Below, one piece after another: positions 2-25,846 of a stretch of 28,863 nt of DNA (the stretch's first letter is position 1; each line of letters starts with the position of its first letter). Source of the stretch: a virus; IMG/VR virus record IMGVR_UViG_3300025701_000040, positions 1 to 28,863 of that record, one strand, 5' to 3'. The position numbers were made by a program, and so were the translations under genes. The notes under the pieces are model-generated. The model was not told where the DNA came from and searched no databases. It saw only the letters and a list, made by a program, of their open reading frames with translations.

Positions 2-616
2 TATAACTTTTACAACCCATATTATAGTAGAACTCAAATGTGGAATGATTGGGTATGGGGATACAATTGGCATTCACCTCATTGGTGGTCACCATTTGGA
101 TATGATCGATGGGGATATAATAACTATGGATACGGAATGGGATGGTCTTATAGTTGGAATAATAGACGTTGGTCAAGTAATAGTTGGAATAATCCTTATG
201 GATGGAATAATTATTATGGATGGGGTAACGGATATAATAGGTATAGAAACACTAACGTATCATATCATTCAGGAAGAAGAGGAAGAATAGCACAAACAGG
301 TACAGTAGGTAATACATTAAGCAATAAAGTAATAACAAAGACAGAAAAGAGAAAACCAAGAATAAATAACACGAACAATGATCAAACTATCAGACATAAT
401 TCTAGAAGGATCATCAAGCCCGAAAGCAGTAATAATGGCGGGAGGAGCAGGATCAGGCAAAACATACCTTCTAAACCAGTTAGGGTTAGACAGCCTAACA
501 CAGTTCAACCCAGACAAGTACGTGGAGGATCCAGACCACCCGTATTACAACAAACTAGGACCCGCAGCCAACCAAACGTCCAAAGACGCAATGGCAGCAG
601 CACAACAAAAAACTAG
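2..616 (+). CDS. Asn/Tyr/Trp/Gly-rich protein with Arg-rich tail, 5' end outside window
   Basis: The reading frame is open to the left edge, so the true start lies upstream; 204 residues are visible. The first internal Met is at 38, but the codons before it (YNFYNPYYSRTQ) have the same composition as what follows. The first ~80 visible residues are extremely rich in Trp, Tyr, Asn and Gly (for example GWNNYYGWGNGYNRY). The remainder is rich in Arg, Ser, Asn, Gln and Pro, with no visible catalytic motif. This two-part layout recalls low-complexity, probably exported proteins common in Flavobacteriia; that match is from memory and function is unknown. The last 239 bases (378-616) overlap the kinase gene in another frame. 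The Arg/Ser/Gln/Pro bias continues smoothly through the overlap to the stop, which argues that this frame is also translated. Alternatively, stop-codon loss has extended it into the kinase gene. Confidence 0.6.
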   Translation, partial: YNFYNPYYSRTQMWNDWVWGYNWHSPHWWSPFGYDRWGYNNYGYGMGWSYSWNNRRWSSNSWNNPYGWNNYYGWGNGYNRYRNTNVSYHSGRRGRIAQTGTVGNTLSNKVITKTEKRKPRINNTNNDQTIRHNSRRIIKPESSNNGGRSRIRQNIPSKPVRVRQPNTVQPRQVRGGSRPPVLQQTRTRSQPNVQRRNGSSTTKN

Positions 617-1319
617 TTTCGTTTGGGATACAACTGCTTCAGGAGAAGGCTTCCAGAAGAACTTAGATGAGATTCTCTCTCTAGGTTATGAAGTATATAT
701 GGTAATGGTGTATGCACACCCTATGATTTCTTATGTATCTAACTTTATGGCTAGAGATAGAAATATACCTGGTGATGCAGTATTTTCTACTTGGAGAAAT
801 GTATATACAAAGATAGAAGATTTTAATAAACAACTAAAAGGTAGATTATCGATTTTTGTGTCTGACAGAGGCGGTAAATATAAAAGTGAAGTTGAAGGGT
901 TTGATACAGCTGCAAAAAATGGTTTAAGCGGAGTAAAGGATTACTTACAAAAGTTTAACGATAAAAATGGCGTTGGAGGTTCTTCTTTCTTTAAACCGGT
1001 AGAAATGACTCCTGAAGAAGAAGAAGAGTTTTTAAAACATGTTGGTAGCGTTGATTGGGATAAGGACAATAGATCAGAAGATAAGGCTATTAAACAAACA
1101 TTCTTAAAAGCATATCAGAAGAACGGAGTAGGACCTGGTCAGGATAAACTTAGAGCTGCAGTAACAAAGTATAGAGAGAGTAGTGAAAAGAGAAAACAAA
1201 AAGCTGATGAAGTATTAGATAATATTGTTGAAATGATTTACAGTCCAATATTTCAAGAAAAACTAAAACATTCAACACCGAGAGAAATAGATCAAAAAGT
1301 ACAAGAATTTTTAGCATGA
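378..1319 (+). CDS. P-loop kinase, zeta-toxin/AAA_33-like
   Basis: The 313-residue protein has a clear Walker A motif at residues 22-29 (GGAGSGKT). It is followed by NPD at 44-46, a TSFVWDTTASG strand at about 79-89 (probable substrate-side region), and a basic segment with R126, R128 and R140 (MARDRN, TWRNVY). These resemble phage zeta-toxin-like kinases, which phosphorylate small molecules such as nucleotides or sugar nucleotides; the substrate here is not predictable. The C-terminal ~120 residues are charged and helical. The first ten residues (MIKLSDIILE) form a short amphipathic leader ending in I-L-E, like several other genes here. Because the P-loop must be included, the out-of-frame overlap with the upstream gene is real for any plausible start. 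The stop overlaps the next start by four bases (ATGA), indicating translational coupling. Confidence 0.8.
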   Translation: MIKLSDIILEGSSSPKAVIMAGGAGSGKTYLLNQLGLDSLTQFNPDKYVEDPDHPYYNKLGPAANQTSKDAMAAAQQKTSFVWDTTASGEGFQKNLDEILSLGYEVYMVMVYAHPMISYVSNFMARDRNIPGDAVFSTWRNVYTKIEDFNKQLKGRLSIFVSDRGGKYKSEVEGFDTAAKNGLSGVKDYLQKFNDKNGVGGSSFFKPVEMTPEEEEEFLKHVGSVDWDKDNRSEDKAIKQTFLKAYQKNGVGPGQDKLRAAVTKYRESSEKRKQKADEVLDNIVEMIYSPIFQEKLKHSTPREIDQKVQEFLA

Positions 1320-4744: not shown

Positions 4745-5008
4745 ATGAAAAACTCTGAATTAATAAACGCAATCAAAGAAGTATTAGCAGAAAAAAAGAG
4801 ACCTGGATTATGGGCTAATATAAACGCAAAGAAAAAAAGAGGTGAGAAAGCTTCTCATGGTAATTCTAATGCCCATAAAGATGCAGTATCAGCAGGTAAT
4901 GCTATGAAAAAAGAAGGTGAAGATACCAAGCATCAAGGTTCTAACTATAAATGGCCAATGTCAAAGGCTACTAAAGATAGAAAAGATGCAGATAAAAAAG
5001 ATAAGTAA
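4745..5008 (+). CDS. Small basic virion-type protein
   Basis: The 87-residue protein is strongly basic and Lys/Ala/Gly-rich. After a helical leader, MKNSELINAIKEVLAE, comes KKRPGLWANINAKKKRGE, a motif I recall in small proteins and protein tails of marine T4-like phages. There is no enzymatic signature. The leader ends in L-A-E, which fits the T4 prohead protease consensus ([I/L]-x-E); a basic mature peptide of ~70 residues would be plausible as a DNA-associated head protein. That role is inference. It starts five bases after the membrane protein and is followed 12 bases later by the unknown 209-residue gene. Confidence 0.6.
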   Translation: MKNSELINAIKEVLAEKKRPGLWANINAKKKRGEKASHGNSNAHKDAVSAGNAMKKEGEDTKHQGSNYKWPMSKATKDRKDADKKDK

Positions 5009-16654: not shown

Positions 16655-17509
16655 ATGAAAGTAAAACACTCAAAATTTCGAAATACAGGTCTTATCTTTG
16701 AATTGCTAGTTAAGCAAATCGCTGCGGATACTCTATCTAAAAAAGATTCTCCAGCTTTAGCTATACTCAGAAAGCACTTCACTGGTAAAACAGTACTTGT
16801 AAAAGAGTTTAAATTATATGAATTTATACTTAAGAATAAAGGCGTAGGACAGAATAAAGCTGAATCTATACTATCAACTATTACTGAGATATCTAGAAAG
16901 TTTGATCAAAAGATTCTTAAAGCTCAAAAATACGCATTAATATCTGATATTAAAGAAGCATATAAGAGTGATGAATTTTTCAATATTCAATCAACAGATT
17001 ATAAAGCATTAGCTTCACTATACTGTTTATTAGAAGCTCAGAATAATAATGACTTAGTAGATCCTAATTTATTGATTAATTTTAAATCAACTTTATTAGA
17101 GCATTTAACTACTAAGAAACAAAACAACACAGACGTTAAAGATACTTTAATAGAAGAATACTCTAAGTACGATAAAGACTTAAAGCTATTAGCATTTAAA
17201 ATATTACTTGAAAAATTTAACGATAAATATAAAGACCTACTCCCGGAACAAAAAAGAATCTTGAGAGAGTTTATTACTTCTGTTAATTCTACAACTAAAC
17301 TACGTACTGTAGTAAATGAAGAGTTAGAATTAATAATTAAAGAAGTAAAAAAATCTACAAGCAAAGTAAAGGATAAGGTAGTGTTAATAAAATTAGAAGA
17401 GATAACTAAGTCTATTAAACCTCTTACAAATAAAGAGAAGATATCAGATACTCATCTAATTAACTTATTACAATATTACGACTTAGTACAAGAATTGAAA
17501 AGACTGTAA
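16655..17509 (+). CDS. Hypothetical helical protein in prohead-core gene position
   Basis: The 284-residue, Lys-rich, almost entirely helical protein has no Cys-rich site, membrane segment or catalytic motif. The N-terminus (KHSKFRNTGLIFELLVKQI) resembles conserved hypothetical proteins I recall next to portal genes in marine T4-like phages. It lies between portal and protease genes, where T4 carries core genes 67 and 68, so a role in prohead core assembly or as an internal protein is plausible but unproven; I see no sequence similarity to gp67 or gp68. The stop overlaps the next start by one base (TAATG), indicating translational coupling. Confidence 0.65.
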   Translation: MKVKHSKFRNTGLIFELLVKQIAADTLSKKDSPALAILRKHFTGKTVLVKEFKLYEFILKNKGVGQNKAESILSTITEISRKFDQKILKAQKYALISDIKEAYKSDEFFNIQSTDYKALASLYCLLEAQNNNDLVDPNLLINFKSTLLEHLTTKKQNNTDVKDTLIEEYSKYDKDLKLLAFKILLEKFNDKYKDLLPEQKRILREFITSVNSTTKLRTVVNEELELIIKEVKKSTSKVKDKVVLIKLEEITKSIKPLTNKEKISDTHLINLLQYYDLVQELKRL

Positions 17510-17697
17510 TGAAAAGAGCAGACCTAGTATCTTTAGTTAGAGAAGTAATACAAGAGTTAGATGAAGCTAACGTAACTGGAGGATCAGCATCATTCACAGC
17601 TGGTACTGGAGCTACTTACGCTACACCTAATTTTCTAGGTAAAGCTACAAAGGCTAAAAAGACATTAAAAAAACAAGGATATAAAGAAATAAAATGA
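17509..17697 (+). CDS. 62-residue protein resembling the capsid protein N-terminal arm
   Basis: This short gene is supported by coupling on both sides: TAATG with the upstream gene and ATGA with the downstream gene. Residues 1-19 are an amphipathic helix (MKRADLVSLVREVIQELDE). They are followed by ANVTGGSASFTAGTGATYA, then a basic C-terminus (GKATKAKKTLKKQGYKEIK). The middle aligns with residues 59-79 of the major capsid protein in this window (EANTNTQGGAGFTAGSGENW), including the Glu-Ala that in the capsid protein is the probable protease cleavage point. It may be a core or decoration peptide that copies the mature capsid arm, or a cleaved assembly factor. The position corresponds to T4 gene 67, which also encodes a small core protein. 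Confidence 0.7.
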   Translation: MKRADLVSLVREVIQELDEANVTGGSASFTAGTGATYATPNFLGKATKAKKTLKKQGYKEIK

Positions 17698-19995: not shown

Positions 19996-20574
19996 ATGAC
20001 ACAACTATTAGTAGACGTAACACCATTTAAACCAGTAATTAGAGAGTCCAAAACTAAACCTGGAGTATATGAGGTAGAAGGAGTATTACAAAGAGCAGTT
20101 GCTCAAAACCAAAACGGCCGTACATATAGTAAAGACATTCTATTAAGAGAGTCAGAAAGATATACTAAAGAGTTTGTTGAGGTTGGTAATGCTTTTGGAG
20201 AACTTGATCACCCTGAGTCTCCCGTTGTCTCCTTAAAGAACGCATCACACGTAATAAAGAAGTTATGGTGGAAAGGAGACGACCTTATGGGACGTGTTGA
20301 GCTATTAAATACACCAGCAGGTAATATCGTTAAAGAAATCTGTAAAGCAGGTCATACTATTGGTATCTCATCTAGAGGTACAGGATCAGTTCAACAAACA
20401 AACGAAGGAGCTTTAGAAGTTCAAGACGACTTTGAATTAGTATGTTGGGACTTTGTATCTAATCCTTCTACTCATGGAGCATTTATGAACCCTATAGCTT
20501 TACAAGAAGGTAGAGTAAAAGTAAACAAGTATAGCGGATTAGATTCTATCATAAACGATATATTAAGAGCATAA
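19996..20574 (+). CDS. Prohead core protease, gp21-like
   Basis: The 192-residue serine protease resembles T4 gp21 (the herpesvirus-assemblin-like fold), which cleaves scaffold, capsid and internal proteins after [I/L]-x-E during head maturation. Visible signatures are NGRTYSKDIL near residue 40, GELDHPES with catalytic His72, and HTIGISSRGTGSV, where S125 or S126 is the nucleophile. DDFELVCWDFVSNPSTHGAF is typical of the C-terminal part. It is close in length to T4 gp21 (212 residues). The stop and next start overlap by one base (TAATG). Its own likely substrates in this window are discussed under the leader-peptide finding. Confidence 0.92.
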   Translation: MTQLLVDVTPFKPVIRESKTKPGVYEVEGVLQRAVAQNQNGRTYSKDILLRESERYTKEFVEVGNAFGELDHPESPVVSLKNASHVIKKLWWKGDDLMGRVELLNTPAGNIVKEICKAGHTIGISSRGTGSVQQTNEGALEVQDDFELVCWDFVSNPSTHGAFMNPIALQEGRVKVNKYSGLDSIINDILRA

Positions 20575-21082: not shown

Positions 21083-21829
21083 ATGCAAAAGTTAATTACT
21101 TTTGGATGTAGTTATACAGCAGGGTTTTTAAATGATGGTAGCATTCCCCTAAAAGGTGCATATAGAGACTACTACGATTGGAGAGGCGGGAACTTTCCTA
21201 AAATATACCCAGAATTACTATCAGAGCAAAATAATCTACAACTACATAATCATGCTAGTCAAGGTTCTTCCAATTCTTTACAATTTTGGAAAGCAACAGA
21301 ATCATACCACACATGGAATAAAGACGACATAATAGTATTTCAATCTACATTCGTTCAAAGACTTGAATTTTTAAACTTTAGTAACGGTGGATATGAATGG
21401 CATATACTTGAATCAGATCCACATCCATCAACGGAAAAAACATTTAATCCGTCTATTTCATATAAAGCACAAGAAGAGCTTCTTATTAGTAGAGACAACA
21501 TATTACAAAATAGAGAAGTAATAGCATACGTAAGAGCAATGAAAGCATTGACAGATGCTAAGCAGTGTCACTTTTTATGGGTACCTTTTGATACCTATTC
21601 ATTAGAGTACGTATTAGATAGAGAAAAAGAATGCAGAGACGTAATAGACTTAATGGTAACTCATACACCGAAAGACGGTACTATGACGATTATAGACGAT
21701 TTGCCTGAAGAAATTAAAGGTACAATTACTAAAGAAACAAATGGTATAGTAGACGATAATCACTATGGTGAAATAGGTAATAAAACACAAGCAGAAATTA
21801 TTTCCCCCTACTTACGTAGGTTTTTGTAA
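21083..21829 (+). CDS. SGNH/GDSL-type hydrolase-like protein
   Basis: The 248-residue protein has the SGNH-hydrolase blocks in order. Block I is ITFGCSYTAG with the nucleophile Ser10; the ASQGSSNS stretch supplies Gly61/Asn64 of block III; block V is IVDDNHYGEIGN with Asp224 and His227 spaced as D-x-x-H. Such enzymes hydrolyse ester bonds, for example removing acetyl groups from polysaccharides; the substrate is unknown here. There is no signal peptide. It sits two bases after the small membrane protein, between protease and scaffold genes, an unusual place for an esterase. It may be a moron or a virion enzyme acting on host surface glycans. A 110-base gap with regulatory features follows. 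Confidence 0.75.
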   Translation: MQKLITFGCSYTAGFLNDGSIPLKGAYRDYYDWRGGNFPKIYPELLSEQNNLQLHNHASQGSSNSLQFWKATESYHTWNKDDIIVFQSTFVQRLEFLNFSNGGYEWHILESDPHPSTEKTFNPSISYKAQEELLISRDNILQNREVIAYVRAMKALTDAKQCHFLWVPFDTYSLEYVLDREKECRDVIDLMVTHTPKDGTMTIIDDLPEEIKGTITKETNGIVDDNHYGEIGNKTQAEIISPYLRRFL

Positions 21830-23045: not shown

Positions 23046-24623
23046 ATGGAAATTAATAACCTATTAGAAGACGCTAGAGGAACCCACAAAGTAATGTTGG
23101 AAGACTCTGCAAAACTTGCTACAAAGTGGCAAGCTTCAGGATTATTGGAAGGATTAGAAGGAAAGAAAGCTTCTAACATGGCCGTAATCTTAGAAAACCA
23201 AGCTAAGCAAGTAGTTGCTGAAGCTAACACAAATACTCAAGGTGGTGCAGGCTTTACTGCTGGATCTGGTGAAAACTGGGCTGGAGTTGCTTTACCATTG
23301 GTAAGAAAAGTATTTGCTCAAATCGTTGCTCAAGATTTCGTATCTGTTCAGCCAATGTCATTACCTTCAGGTCTAGTATTTTATCTAGATTTTAAATACG
23401 GTGATGCTTCAGCTAACAGAGCAGATGGAGACAACTTGTACGGTAACGTAACAGAAGGTGCAACAAAAATGATCAAAGATGCAGATGTATCTGGAGGTCT
23501 TTATGGAGCTGGACAATTCGGTTACTCTATCAACAACACTTCAGGAACTTTTACTCCAACAGCAACTGCAGCAGGAACTTTAGCAGATGTAGGATTTGAT
23601 GCTGAATTCGCAACTGGATCAGTAGAAACAGTAGAAGTAGATTTAGCTGGAAAATCAGCTGACCTATTAGCTGCAAGAGCATTCGTACTTAAAGTAGGAG
23701 CTGAAATTGTATCTGTATATCCACAGTTTACTACAGTAGCAGGAGACAAAGTAACTTTTGTTACTGCTGCAGGTAAAGTAACAGGAGATGTAACAGTAAT
23801 ATACTCTAAGCAAACTAAAGATAACGACAGAGGAGACTTTGAAGCAGATTCAGACAGAGCAGTAGATACTTCTATTTCTATTCCAGAAATCGACGTTAAA
23901 CTACAAAGTGAGGCAATTGTTGCTAAGACTAGAAAGTTAAAAGCACAATGGACTCCAGAATTTGCACAAGATTTAAATGCTTATCATTCAATTGATGCTG
24001 AAGCAGAATTAACATCTTTACTATCTGAATATATCTCTATGGAGATCGATTTAGAGATCTTAGATATGTTGATCTTAGAAGCTAACACAACTGAAAGATG
24101 GTCTGCACAAAACAATAAAGTTTGGGCAAACGGAGCATGGTCTTCTGCAGGATCTGATTTTTACAATACTCAAGGACAATGGTTCCAAACATTAGGAACT
24201 AAAATCCAAAAAGTATCTAACAAGATTCACCAGAAAACATTAAGAGGTGGTGCAAACTTCCTAGTATGTTCTCCAAGTGTTGCTACAATCCTAGAATCAA
24301 TTCCTGGATATGCTGCAGCTACTAACGGTGATCAAGATCAATTCGCAATGGGCGTTCAGAAAGTTGGTGCTTTGAATAACAGATTCCAAGTTTATAAGAA
24401 TCCTTACATGACTGAAAATACAATCCTTATGGGTTATAGAGGAAGTCAATTCTTAGAAGCAGGAGCAGTATATTCTCCATATGTACCATTAATGATGACT
24501 CCATTAGTATACGATCCAGAAACCTTCACTCCAAGAAAAGGTTTAATGACTCGTTACGCTAAGAAGATGATCAGACCAGAATTCTACGCGAAAGTATTTG
24601 TATCTGATTTAGGTCAGATATAA
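23046..24623 (+). CDS. Major capsid protein, gp23-like
   Basis: The 525-residue precursor matches the T4-type major capsid protein (gp23, 521 residues) in size and motifs. The propeptide ends around VVAE-AN; cleavage after Glu59 would parallel T4 gp23 (after Glu65) and give a mature N-arm starting ANTNTQGGAGFTAGSG. Family stretches include WAGVALPLVRKVFAQIVAQD, VQPMSLPSGLVFYLDFKYG, the highly conserved KTRKLKAQWTPEFAQDLNAY, and the C-terminal YDPETFTPRKGLMTRYAKKM. The region of about residues 165-260 (Thr/Ala/Val-rich, beta) looks like a surface-domain insertion. It is followed by an intrinsic terminator, as expected for a very highly expressed gene. Confidence 0.96.
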   Translation: MEINNLLEDARGTHKVMLEDSAKLATKWQASGLLEGLEGKKASNMAVILENQAKQVVAEANTNTQGGAGFTAGSGENWAGVALPLVRKVFAQIVAQDFVSVQPMSLPSGLVFYLDFKYGDASANRADGDNLYGNVTEGATKMIKDADVSGGLYGAGQFGYSINNTSGTFTPTATAAGTLADVGFDAEFATGSVETVEVDLAGKSADLLAARAFVLKVGAEIVSVYPQFTTVAGDKVTFVTAAGKVTGDVTVIYSKQTKDNDRGDFEADSDRAVDTSISIPEIDVKLQSEAIVAKTRKLKAQWTPEFAQDLNAYHSIDAEAELTSLLSEYISMEIDLEILDMLILEANTTERWSAQNNKVWANGAWSSAGSDFYNTQGQWFQTLGTKIQKVSNKIHQKTLRGGANFLVCSPSVATILESIPGYAAATNGDQDQFAMGVQKVGALNNRFQVYKNPYMTENTILMGYRGSQFLEAGAVYSPYVPLMMTPLVYDPETFTPRKGLMTRYAKKMIRPEFYAKVFVSDLGQI

Positions 24624-24700: not shown

Positions 24701-25846
24701 ATGGCTAATGTAACAATTTGGGATGGTAATGCGAATTTTAATTCTGGCAGTGCCACACCTTTCGGATTCTACGACAGTGATCTTGACTTTCAAAATGATG
24801 CTATAAAAGTAGCTAAATTCTGTGGTACTAGATTAGGGTACCCTTTAATGGACGTAGAACTACAAGATACATCTTTCTTTGCTTGCTTTGAAGAAGCAGT
24901 AACAACTTACGGTAATGAAGTATTTCAGTATAAGATTCGAGAAAATTACCTTAGCTTAGAAGGTTCATCAACTGGTAGTAGAATGAACAACCAATTAGTT
25001 GATCCAACTATAAGCAGGGTTATACAGATGTCTAAACATTACGGTACTGAAGCAGGAGTAGGAGGTAATGTTACCAAGTATTCGGGTTCATTAGATATTG
25101 TAGGAGGTAAACAAAGCTACGATTTAGATGCATGGTCAAAAGATAAAGGTATACAAGGAGGAATAGAGATAAGAAAAGTCTTTCATGAAGCACCTCCTGC
25201 TATTATGAGATACTTTGATCCATATGCTGGTACAGGAACAGGAGTACAATCGTTAATGTCAGCATTTGACTTCGGTAAATTCTCCCCAGGTATTAATTTT
25301 ATGTTAATGCCTACATCATATGACGTTCAATTACTACAAGCTATTGAATTTAATGATCAAATTAGAAAGTCAACATATTCTTTTGAGATAGTAAACAGTC
25401 AACTTACAATATTCCCAGTTCCTACTAATACAGGAAGGTTATGGTTTGAGTATTATCAAAATCAAGATAAGAATCAGGTCAATTATAACAATGCTTCTGA
25501 TGTTATTACCAATGTAGGTGAAGTTCCTTATACTAATCCTCAATATAGTAACATAAACAGTGTGGGTAGACAGTGGATATTCAGATATGCATTAGCATTA
25601 TCAAAAGAACTATTAGGATACATCAGAGGTAAATATACAACACTACCAGTACCGGGTTCTGAAGCTACTTTAAATCAAGCTGACTTATTAGCTGATGCTA
25701 GAACTGAAAAAATAGAGCTAATGACTAGCTTAAGAGAGATGTTAAACGCAACAGGTCGTGCAGCACAGTTAGAAGCACAAGCTAAAGAATCTGAAGATGT
25801 AGAAAACATCTTAAAATCAGTACCAATGGTAATATACGTAGGATAA
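24701..25846 (+). CDS. Neck / head-completion protein, gp13-like
   Basis: From ATG 24701 the product is 381 residues. An in-frame ATG at 24674 is rejected because the extension (MLFIIKSIL) would lie across the candidate promoter box. The N-terminal part (LDFQNDAIKVAKFCGTRLGYPLMDVELQDT, then CFEEAVTTYGNEVFQYKI) resembles neck proteins of marine T4-like phages, where an adaptor attaches to the portal. The centre is beta-rich; the C-terminal part (about 285-365) is helical (WIFRYALALSKELLGYIRGKY). It probably forms the head-tail connector. The stop overlaps the following start by one base (TAATG). The gp13 assignment rests on family resemblance and on the gp14- and gp15-like genes downstream. 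Confidence 0.7.
   Translation: MANVTIWDGNANFNSGSATPFGFYDSDLDFQNDAIKVAKFCGTRLGYPLMDVELQDTSFFACFEEAVTTYGNEVFQYKIRENYLSLEGSSTGSRMNNQLVDPTISRVIQMSKHYGTEAGVGGNVTKYSGSLDIVGGKQSYDLDAWSKDKGIQGGIEIRKVFHEAPPAIMRYFDPYAGTGTGVQSLMSAFDFGKFSPGINFMLMPTSYDVQLLQAIEFNDQIRKSTYSFEIVNSQLTIFPVPTNTGRLWFEYYQNQDKNQVNYNNASDVITNVGEVPYTNPQYSNINSVGRQWIFRYALALSKELLGYIRGKYTTLPVPGSEATLNQADLLADARTEKIELMTSLREMLNATGRAAQLEAQAKESEDVENILKSVPMVIYVG

What the first reader, a model, noticed from the sequence alone, without database searches (positions are those of the whole stretch)
17509..17697. 62-residue protein that mimics the mature N-arm of the major capsid protein
Residues 19-38 (E-ANVTGGSASFTAGTGATYA) line up with capsid residues 59-79 (E-ANTNTQGGAGFTAGSGENW), including the Glu-Ala at the expected protease cleavage site. 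A tiny protein sharing the processed edge of the capsid protein could be an assembly chaperone, a core plug, or compete for the same binding groove. It occupies the T4 gene 67 position.
Basis: seen in the sequence. Interest (0 to 1): 0.62.

Follow-up and report, generated by a model that had tools for sequence, protein, structure and literature searches.

The report
Head protein mimicking capsid's N-terminal arm
In a large group of uncultured T4-like phages, a tiny protein that is probably cut inside the forming virus head carries, right after its predicted cut site, a copy of the stretch that starts the mature capsid protein, and the two stretches have changed together through evolution, which suggests they fit the same place in the shell.

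Summary
The resemblance is real and specific. The 62-residue ORF (17509-17697) sits between portal and protease genes of a T4-like phage. Its residues 19-38 match capsid residues 59-78 better than any other stretch of 27 window proteins. A family profile finds only itself and the capsid cleavage site in viral contigs up to 156 kb. All 143 distinct short relatives keep an [LIVM]xE site there.

Across 88 distinct small-protein/capsid pairs, the F-x-x-G motif is in both (47) or in neither (28); 12 keep it only in the capsid, 1 only in the small protein. On a tree built without these segments, each trait changes 12-13 times and correlated evolution is strong (likelihood ratio 32-39; null maximum 16.6 in 200 simulations). 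Controls do not covary: the small protein's other parts, and a look-alike neck protein. Codons argue against gene conversion.

Best reading: a processed internal head protein whose mature N-terminus imitates the N-fist equivalent of the capsid and docks at the same lattice site, tethering a basic tail. Docking is inferred, not shown. It is not a gp67 homologue: position only partly matches, charge is opposite, no similarity found.

The parts
17509..17697 (+). 62-aa head-protein candidate (capsid N-arm mimic)
   Evidence: ORF with 58 close relatives and 143 distinct short members downstream of p284; start overlaps the p284 stop and stop overlaps the next ATG
17509..17565 (+). N-terminal helical propeptide (residues 1-19), capsid-targeting-like, ending in the predicted cut L-D-E|A
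   Evidence: AlphaFold helix 3-20; E12, E19, A20, N21 invariant in A1 although 3 residues are deleted upstream in some relatives; [LIVM]xE in 143/143 short members vs 26.8 expected
17566..17622 (+). Capsid N-arm mimic (residues 20-38, ANVTGGSASFTAGTGATYA)
   Evidence: Profile hit to the capsid cleavage site; covariation with the capsid N-arm
17623..17694 (+). TPxFLGK...AKKxLKKxGYK basic C-terminal module (residues 39-62)
   Evidence: P40, G44, A49, L53, K55, G57, K59 invariant in A1; predicted mature peptide 20-62 has net charge +7; helix 47-55
23046..24623 (+). Major capsid protein, gp23 family
   Evidence: Pfam Gp23 E 7.6e-85; a single gp23-family gene in each of 8 related phage records tested
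23220..23279 (+). Capsid cleavage Glu59 and mature N-arm residues 60-78, ending at invariant W78 (N-fist equivalent)
   Evidence: E59 and W78 invariant in 58 capsid proteins; profile aligns this start onto the start of mature T4 gp23*
19996..20574 (+). Prohead protease, gp21-like, presumed to cut both proteins
   Evidence: Peptidase_S77 E 6.8e-32
16655..17509 (+). p284, conserved unnamed gene directly upstream; used as synteny anchor

Best explanation
The gene encodes a small internal head (core) protein. Residues 1-19 act as a targeting propeptide that carries it into the prohead core; the gp21-like protease cuts after Glu19 while it cuts the capsid protein after Glu59. The freed 43-residue peptide then starts with a segment that imitates the mature capsid N-arm (the region of the T4 N-fist) and docks at the lattice site used by that arm, either where a capsid arm is missing (for example next to the portal) or in competition with it during maturation, tethering a basic tail to the shell or DNA. 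Shown: gene, synteny, protease gene, cut-site motif, similarity, co-evolution. Inferred: cleavage, presence in heads, docking site, role of the tail.
For: Specific two-protein match: profile A7 of the shared segment finds exactly the small protein and the capsid protein in motif-positive contigs of 114-167 kb, and only the capsid protein (weakly) in most motif-negative ones. Correlated evolution: Pagel LRT 32.3 (p 1.7e-6) for the F motif and 39.1 for long linker, against 3.2 (p 0.53) for a control trait; 0 of 200 null simulations reach it, maximum 16.6; independent pairs go the same way in 7-8 and the opposite way in 0. Partial Mantel linker vs N-arm r 0.51, p 0.0005; propeptide vs N-arm 0.05; tail vs N-arm -0.01. 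Protease distance does not track either segment (r 0.09, 0.05). Fine matches in distant pairs: GNSPAY/GNSEAW (L242), TGGGAGAAGF/TGGGAGAGTF (L278), GENY/GENW (L283). Same-codon use 309 of 703 vs 373 expected speaks against DNA copying. The motif in the small protein is nearly confined to phages whose capsid has it (47 of 48). In T4 the N-fist contacts four subunits and is internal before expansion (PMC9958956); it is disordered where it faces the portal (PMC7136217).
Against: 12 of 88 pairs keep the motif in the capsid but not in the small protein. Within motif-positive pairs the tail control also shows some correlation (r 0.19-0.27 vs 0.30-0.34 for the linker), and within motif-negative pairs the linker signal is weak. 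The segment is predicted as coil with low confidence in the small protein and the capsid model is poor, so nothing structural supports docking. No proteomic data show that the protein is in virions or is cut. The propeptide is not significantly amphipathic.
Confidence: 0.5

Rival explanations
1. Both segments are recognised by a third head protein (scaffold, portal, or another core protein), not by the capsid lattice; the small protein is a core component that competes for or shares that partner.
For: Gene lies in the scaffold/protease block; scaffold distance shows a small residual correlation with the linker (r 0.15, p 0.007) and N-arm (0.11, p 0.06).
Against: These correlations are far below the direct linker/N-arm value of 0.51.
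Confidence: 0.22
2. The two segments bind each other or self-associate (like with like), for example as a small strand-rich contact in the prohead.
For: Like-to-like matching, including indels in distant pairs (L278, L242).
Against: No structural support; both are predicted with low confidence; capsids keep the motif in 12 pairs where the small protein has lost it.
Confidence: 0.1
3. The shared segment is an extended substrate signature for the prohead protease (P' side), so similarity reflects shared cleavage only.
For: Segments start at the predicted cut; P1' and P2' residues covary (LRT 19.6 and 20.5, p 6e-4 and 4e-4).
Against: The key motif lies about 8-18 residues past the cut; protease divergence does not track the segments; the T4 protease needs little more than L/I-x-E (PMC9026906); whole-contig searches find no third protein with it.
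Confidence: 0.1
4. Chance or low-complexity Gly/Ser/Thr resemblance kept by shared ancestry.
For: Segments are rich in G, S, T and A; a gp13-like N-terminus looks similar too.
Against: Correlated changes on a tree, with controls that do not covary, including that same gp13 segment (r -0.08 and 0.10 vs 0.56 for linker/N-arm on the same 46 phages).
Confidence: 0.05

Closest known systems
T4 internal proteins IPI-III with capsid targeting sequence
   Same: Works like them as far as can be seen: short N-terminal propeptide ending in a gp21-type Glu site, basic mature part
   Different: No homology claimed; T4 internal proteins are not known to me to copy the gp23* N-terminus, and they are larger
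T4 gp67 (PIP) and gp68 core proteins
   Same: Genes lie between portal and protease
   Different: No detectable similarity; gp67 is strongly acidic (-25), mature small protein +7; neither gp67 nor gp68 resembles the T4 N-fist above shuffles
T4 gp23* N-fist/N-arm
   Same: The segment in the small protein corresponds to the first 19 residues of this phage's equivalent region
   Different: Here a copy sits in a separate small protein

Membership tests
T4 gp67 (prohead core protein PIP) | Sequence similarity to gp67 | tested here: not met
   No Pfam hit; profile A6 and BLAST do not list gp67
T4 gp67 (prohead core protein PIP) | Gene directly after portal gene 20 | tested here: not met
   p284 lies between; the small gene is second of three before the protease
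T4 gp67 (prohead core protein PIP) | Strongly acidic composition | tested here: not met
   Net +5 full length, +7 mature, against -25 for gp67; family median +8
Processed internal head proteins (T4 IP-like) | N-terminal propeptide ending in (L/I)-x-Glu | tested here: met
   LDE at 17-19; 143 of 143 short members have [LIVM]xE in residues 9-26 vs 26.8 expected
Processed internal head proteins (T4 IP-like) | A gp21-type protease is encoded in the same genome | tested here: met
   Peptidase_S77 at 19996-20574
Processed internal head proteins (T4 IP-like) | Found inside heads and cut by the protease | not testable with these tools
   Needs proteomics; the paper read on Baltic Flavobacterium phages does not mention immuto or mass spectrometry
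gp23 major capsid family (for 23046-24623) | Gp23 profile match | tested here: met
   E 7.6e-85; profile also matches T4 gp23* structures

The most novel reading that the evidence does not exclude
The phage encodes a separate protease-released peptide that imitates the mature N-terminal arm of its own capsid protein and occupies arm-binding sites in the shell (for instance those left empty around the portal): a co-evolving capsid-arm mimic, not described before to my knowledge.
Probability: 0.4. Interest if true: 0.8.

Novelty: new variant of a known kind. Interest (0 to 1): 0.64.

Why it matters
Small core proteins of T4-like heads are poorly understood. A co-evolving mimic of the capsid arm points to a definite binding site and gives a testable handle on how shells fill arm sites, mark the portal vertex or time expansion. 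The family is widespread in uncultured T4-like phages, yet its only clear relatives among 50,697 phage records are the four records of Flavobacterium phage immuto, where it is called hypothetical.

Tried and rejected
Low-complexity chance match: rejected by correlated evolution and controls. Gene conversion between the two genes: rejected, codons are no more alike than expected. A third protein with the segment: none in whole contigs. The gp13-like neck protein (MANVTIWDGNANFNSGSATPFGF) looks similar but does not covary. gp67/gp68 homology: none. PHROG 4482 hit at E 0.029: too weak to use. Structure: small protein 72 pLDDT with a low-confidence segment, capsid model 60 pLDDT, so no fold search or docking was attempted. 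A search of phage isolates with the window protein found nothing; a longer relative found the immuto homologue. A scan with the 179-aa Microcystis phage protein found no relatives.

Full report
WHAT IS THERE. The window is a head-gene block of a T4-like phage: terminase 13131, portal 14734 (Pfam Portal_T4 E 5e-73), p284 16655, the 62-aa gene 17509, p766 17694, protease 19996 (Peptidase_S77 E 7e-32), scaffold-like 21940, capsid protein 23046 (Gp23 E 8e-85), gp13-like neck protein about 24701. The 62-aa gene overlaps the stop of p284 by one base and the start of p766 by four.

IS THE MATCH REAL. Residues 19-38 of the small protein align with capsid residues 59-78 from the same Glu-Ala. For this pair alone the shuffled-segment p is 0.0006 and no other stretch of 27 window proteins scores as high. 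A profile of the small-protein family (no capsid sequence in it) finds in 13 of 14 long viral contigs only itself and the capsid cleavage site (E 3e-5 to 0.04; in the 14th the contig ends soon after the small gene). A profile of the shared segment finds exactly these two places in motif-positive contigs of 114-167 kb.

FAMILY. Viral-contig scans with the small protein, its alignment and p284 gave about 325 loci. The small gene follows p284 in most relatives; short members run from 53 to 123 residues, some with a second TPHAF...GYK module. In more distant phages the same segment sits inside larger proteins at the same place in the gene order (L242, L271, L278). The isolates found are Flavobacterium phage immuto and, less alike, Microcystis phage Mel-JY01. 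All 143 short members have [LIVM]xE in residues 9-26 (expected 26.8).

CO-VARIATION. I extracted 88 distinct pairs of linker and capsid N-arm. F-x-x-G is in both in 47, in neither in 28, only in the capsid in 12, only in the small protein in 1. On an IQ-TREE tree of p284 plus the capsid body, with both segments left out, the traits change 13 and 12 times; supported independent pairs agree 7-8 to 0 for long linker (p 0.008-0.03). Pagel tests: 32.3 (p 1.7e-6) and 39.1 (p 7e-8); the control trait, C-terminal extension, gives 3.2 (p 0.53); P1' and P2' residues also covary. A parametric null of 200 simulations reached at most 16.6. Partial Mantel correlation of linker with N-arm is 0.51; of propeptide 0.05; of tail -0.01, and stays 0.49-0.51 with three trees. 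Within motif-positive pairs it is 0.30-0.34 while the tail control rises to 0.19-0.27, so most of the signal is the gain and loss of the motif. Fitted rates say that the small protein's motif is gained only where the capsid has it and is lost fast where it does not, which I read as the small protein following the capsid. Codons show no sign of gene conversion. The look-alike gp13 N-terminus does not covary.

MECHANISM. In T4 the protease cuts after L/I-x-E and internal proteins enter the core by N-terminal propeptides (PMC9026906). The freed gp23* N-terminus, disordered inside the prohead, forms after expansion the N-fist that contacts four subunits (PMC9958956). Five N-fists that face the portal are disordered (PMC7136217). 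The capsid profile aligns the start of our mature capsid protein onto that region of T4 gp23*. The simplest account is that the small protein is cut in the same compartment and that its new N-terminus fits the site of the capsid N-arm. The basic tail (+7 in 43 residues; family median +8) could touch DNA or the portal. Cleavage, head location and docking are inferences. Only one gp23-family gene is present in each of 8 related records, so no separate gp24-type vertex protein was seen.

WHAT IT IS NOT. It is not a gp67 or gp68 homologue by sequence, charge or exact position. T4 itself shows no such mimic in gp67, gp68, gp22 or gp24.

LIMITS. Metagenomic contigs, no proteomics, poor structure models, one coding of the motif by regular expression, the cut Glu chosen by rule when linkers were extracted, and searches capped at 80 loci each.

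Noticed in passing
window 24701-25846: gp13-like neck protein starts (M)ANVTIWDGNANFNSGSATPFGF, resembling the same segment; it does not covary with it, so probably coincidence or separate constraint.
   Followed up: yes
window 4745-5008: 87-aa protein starts MKNSELINAIKEVLAE, like the propeptide of the small protein; may be another head-targeted protein.
   Followed up: no
window 378-1319: P-loop protein with N-terminus MIKLSDIILEGSS that also resembles a cleavable targeting sequence.
   Followed up: no
window 16655-17509: p284 has no confident Pfam or PHROG match yet is conserved directly upstream of the small gene in hundreds of contigs, and is present in Flavobacterium and Microcystis phages.
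   Followed up: partly
window 21083-21829: 248-aa ORF between p168 and the scaffold gene was not found in the first 58 related loci; looks like an insertion.
   Followed up: no
L126, L127, L139, L142-L147 after p284: Longer versions of the small protein carry a second TPHAF...TEEMGYKL module, apparently a tandem duplication of the C-terminal part.
   Followed up: no
L242, L264, L271, L278: The segment plus TPxAF module is embedded in different larger proteins at the same locus, suggesting a mobile module.
   Followed up: partly
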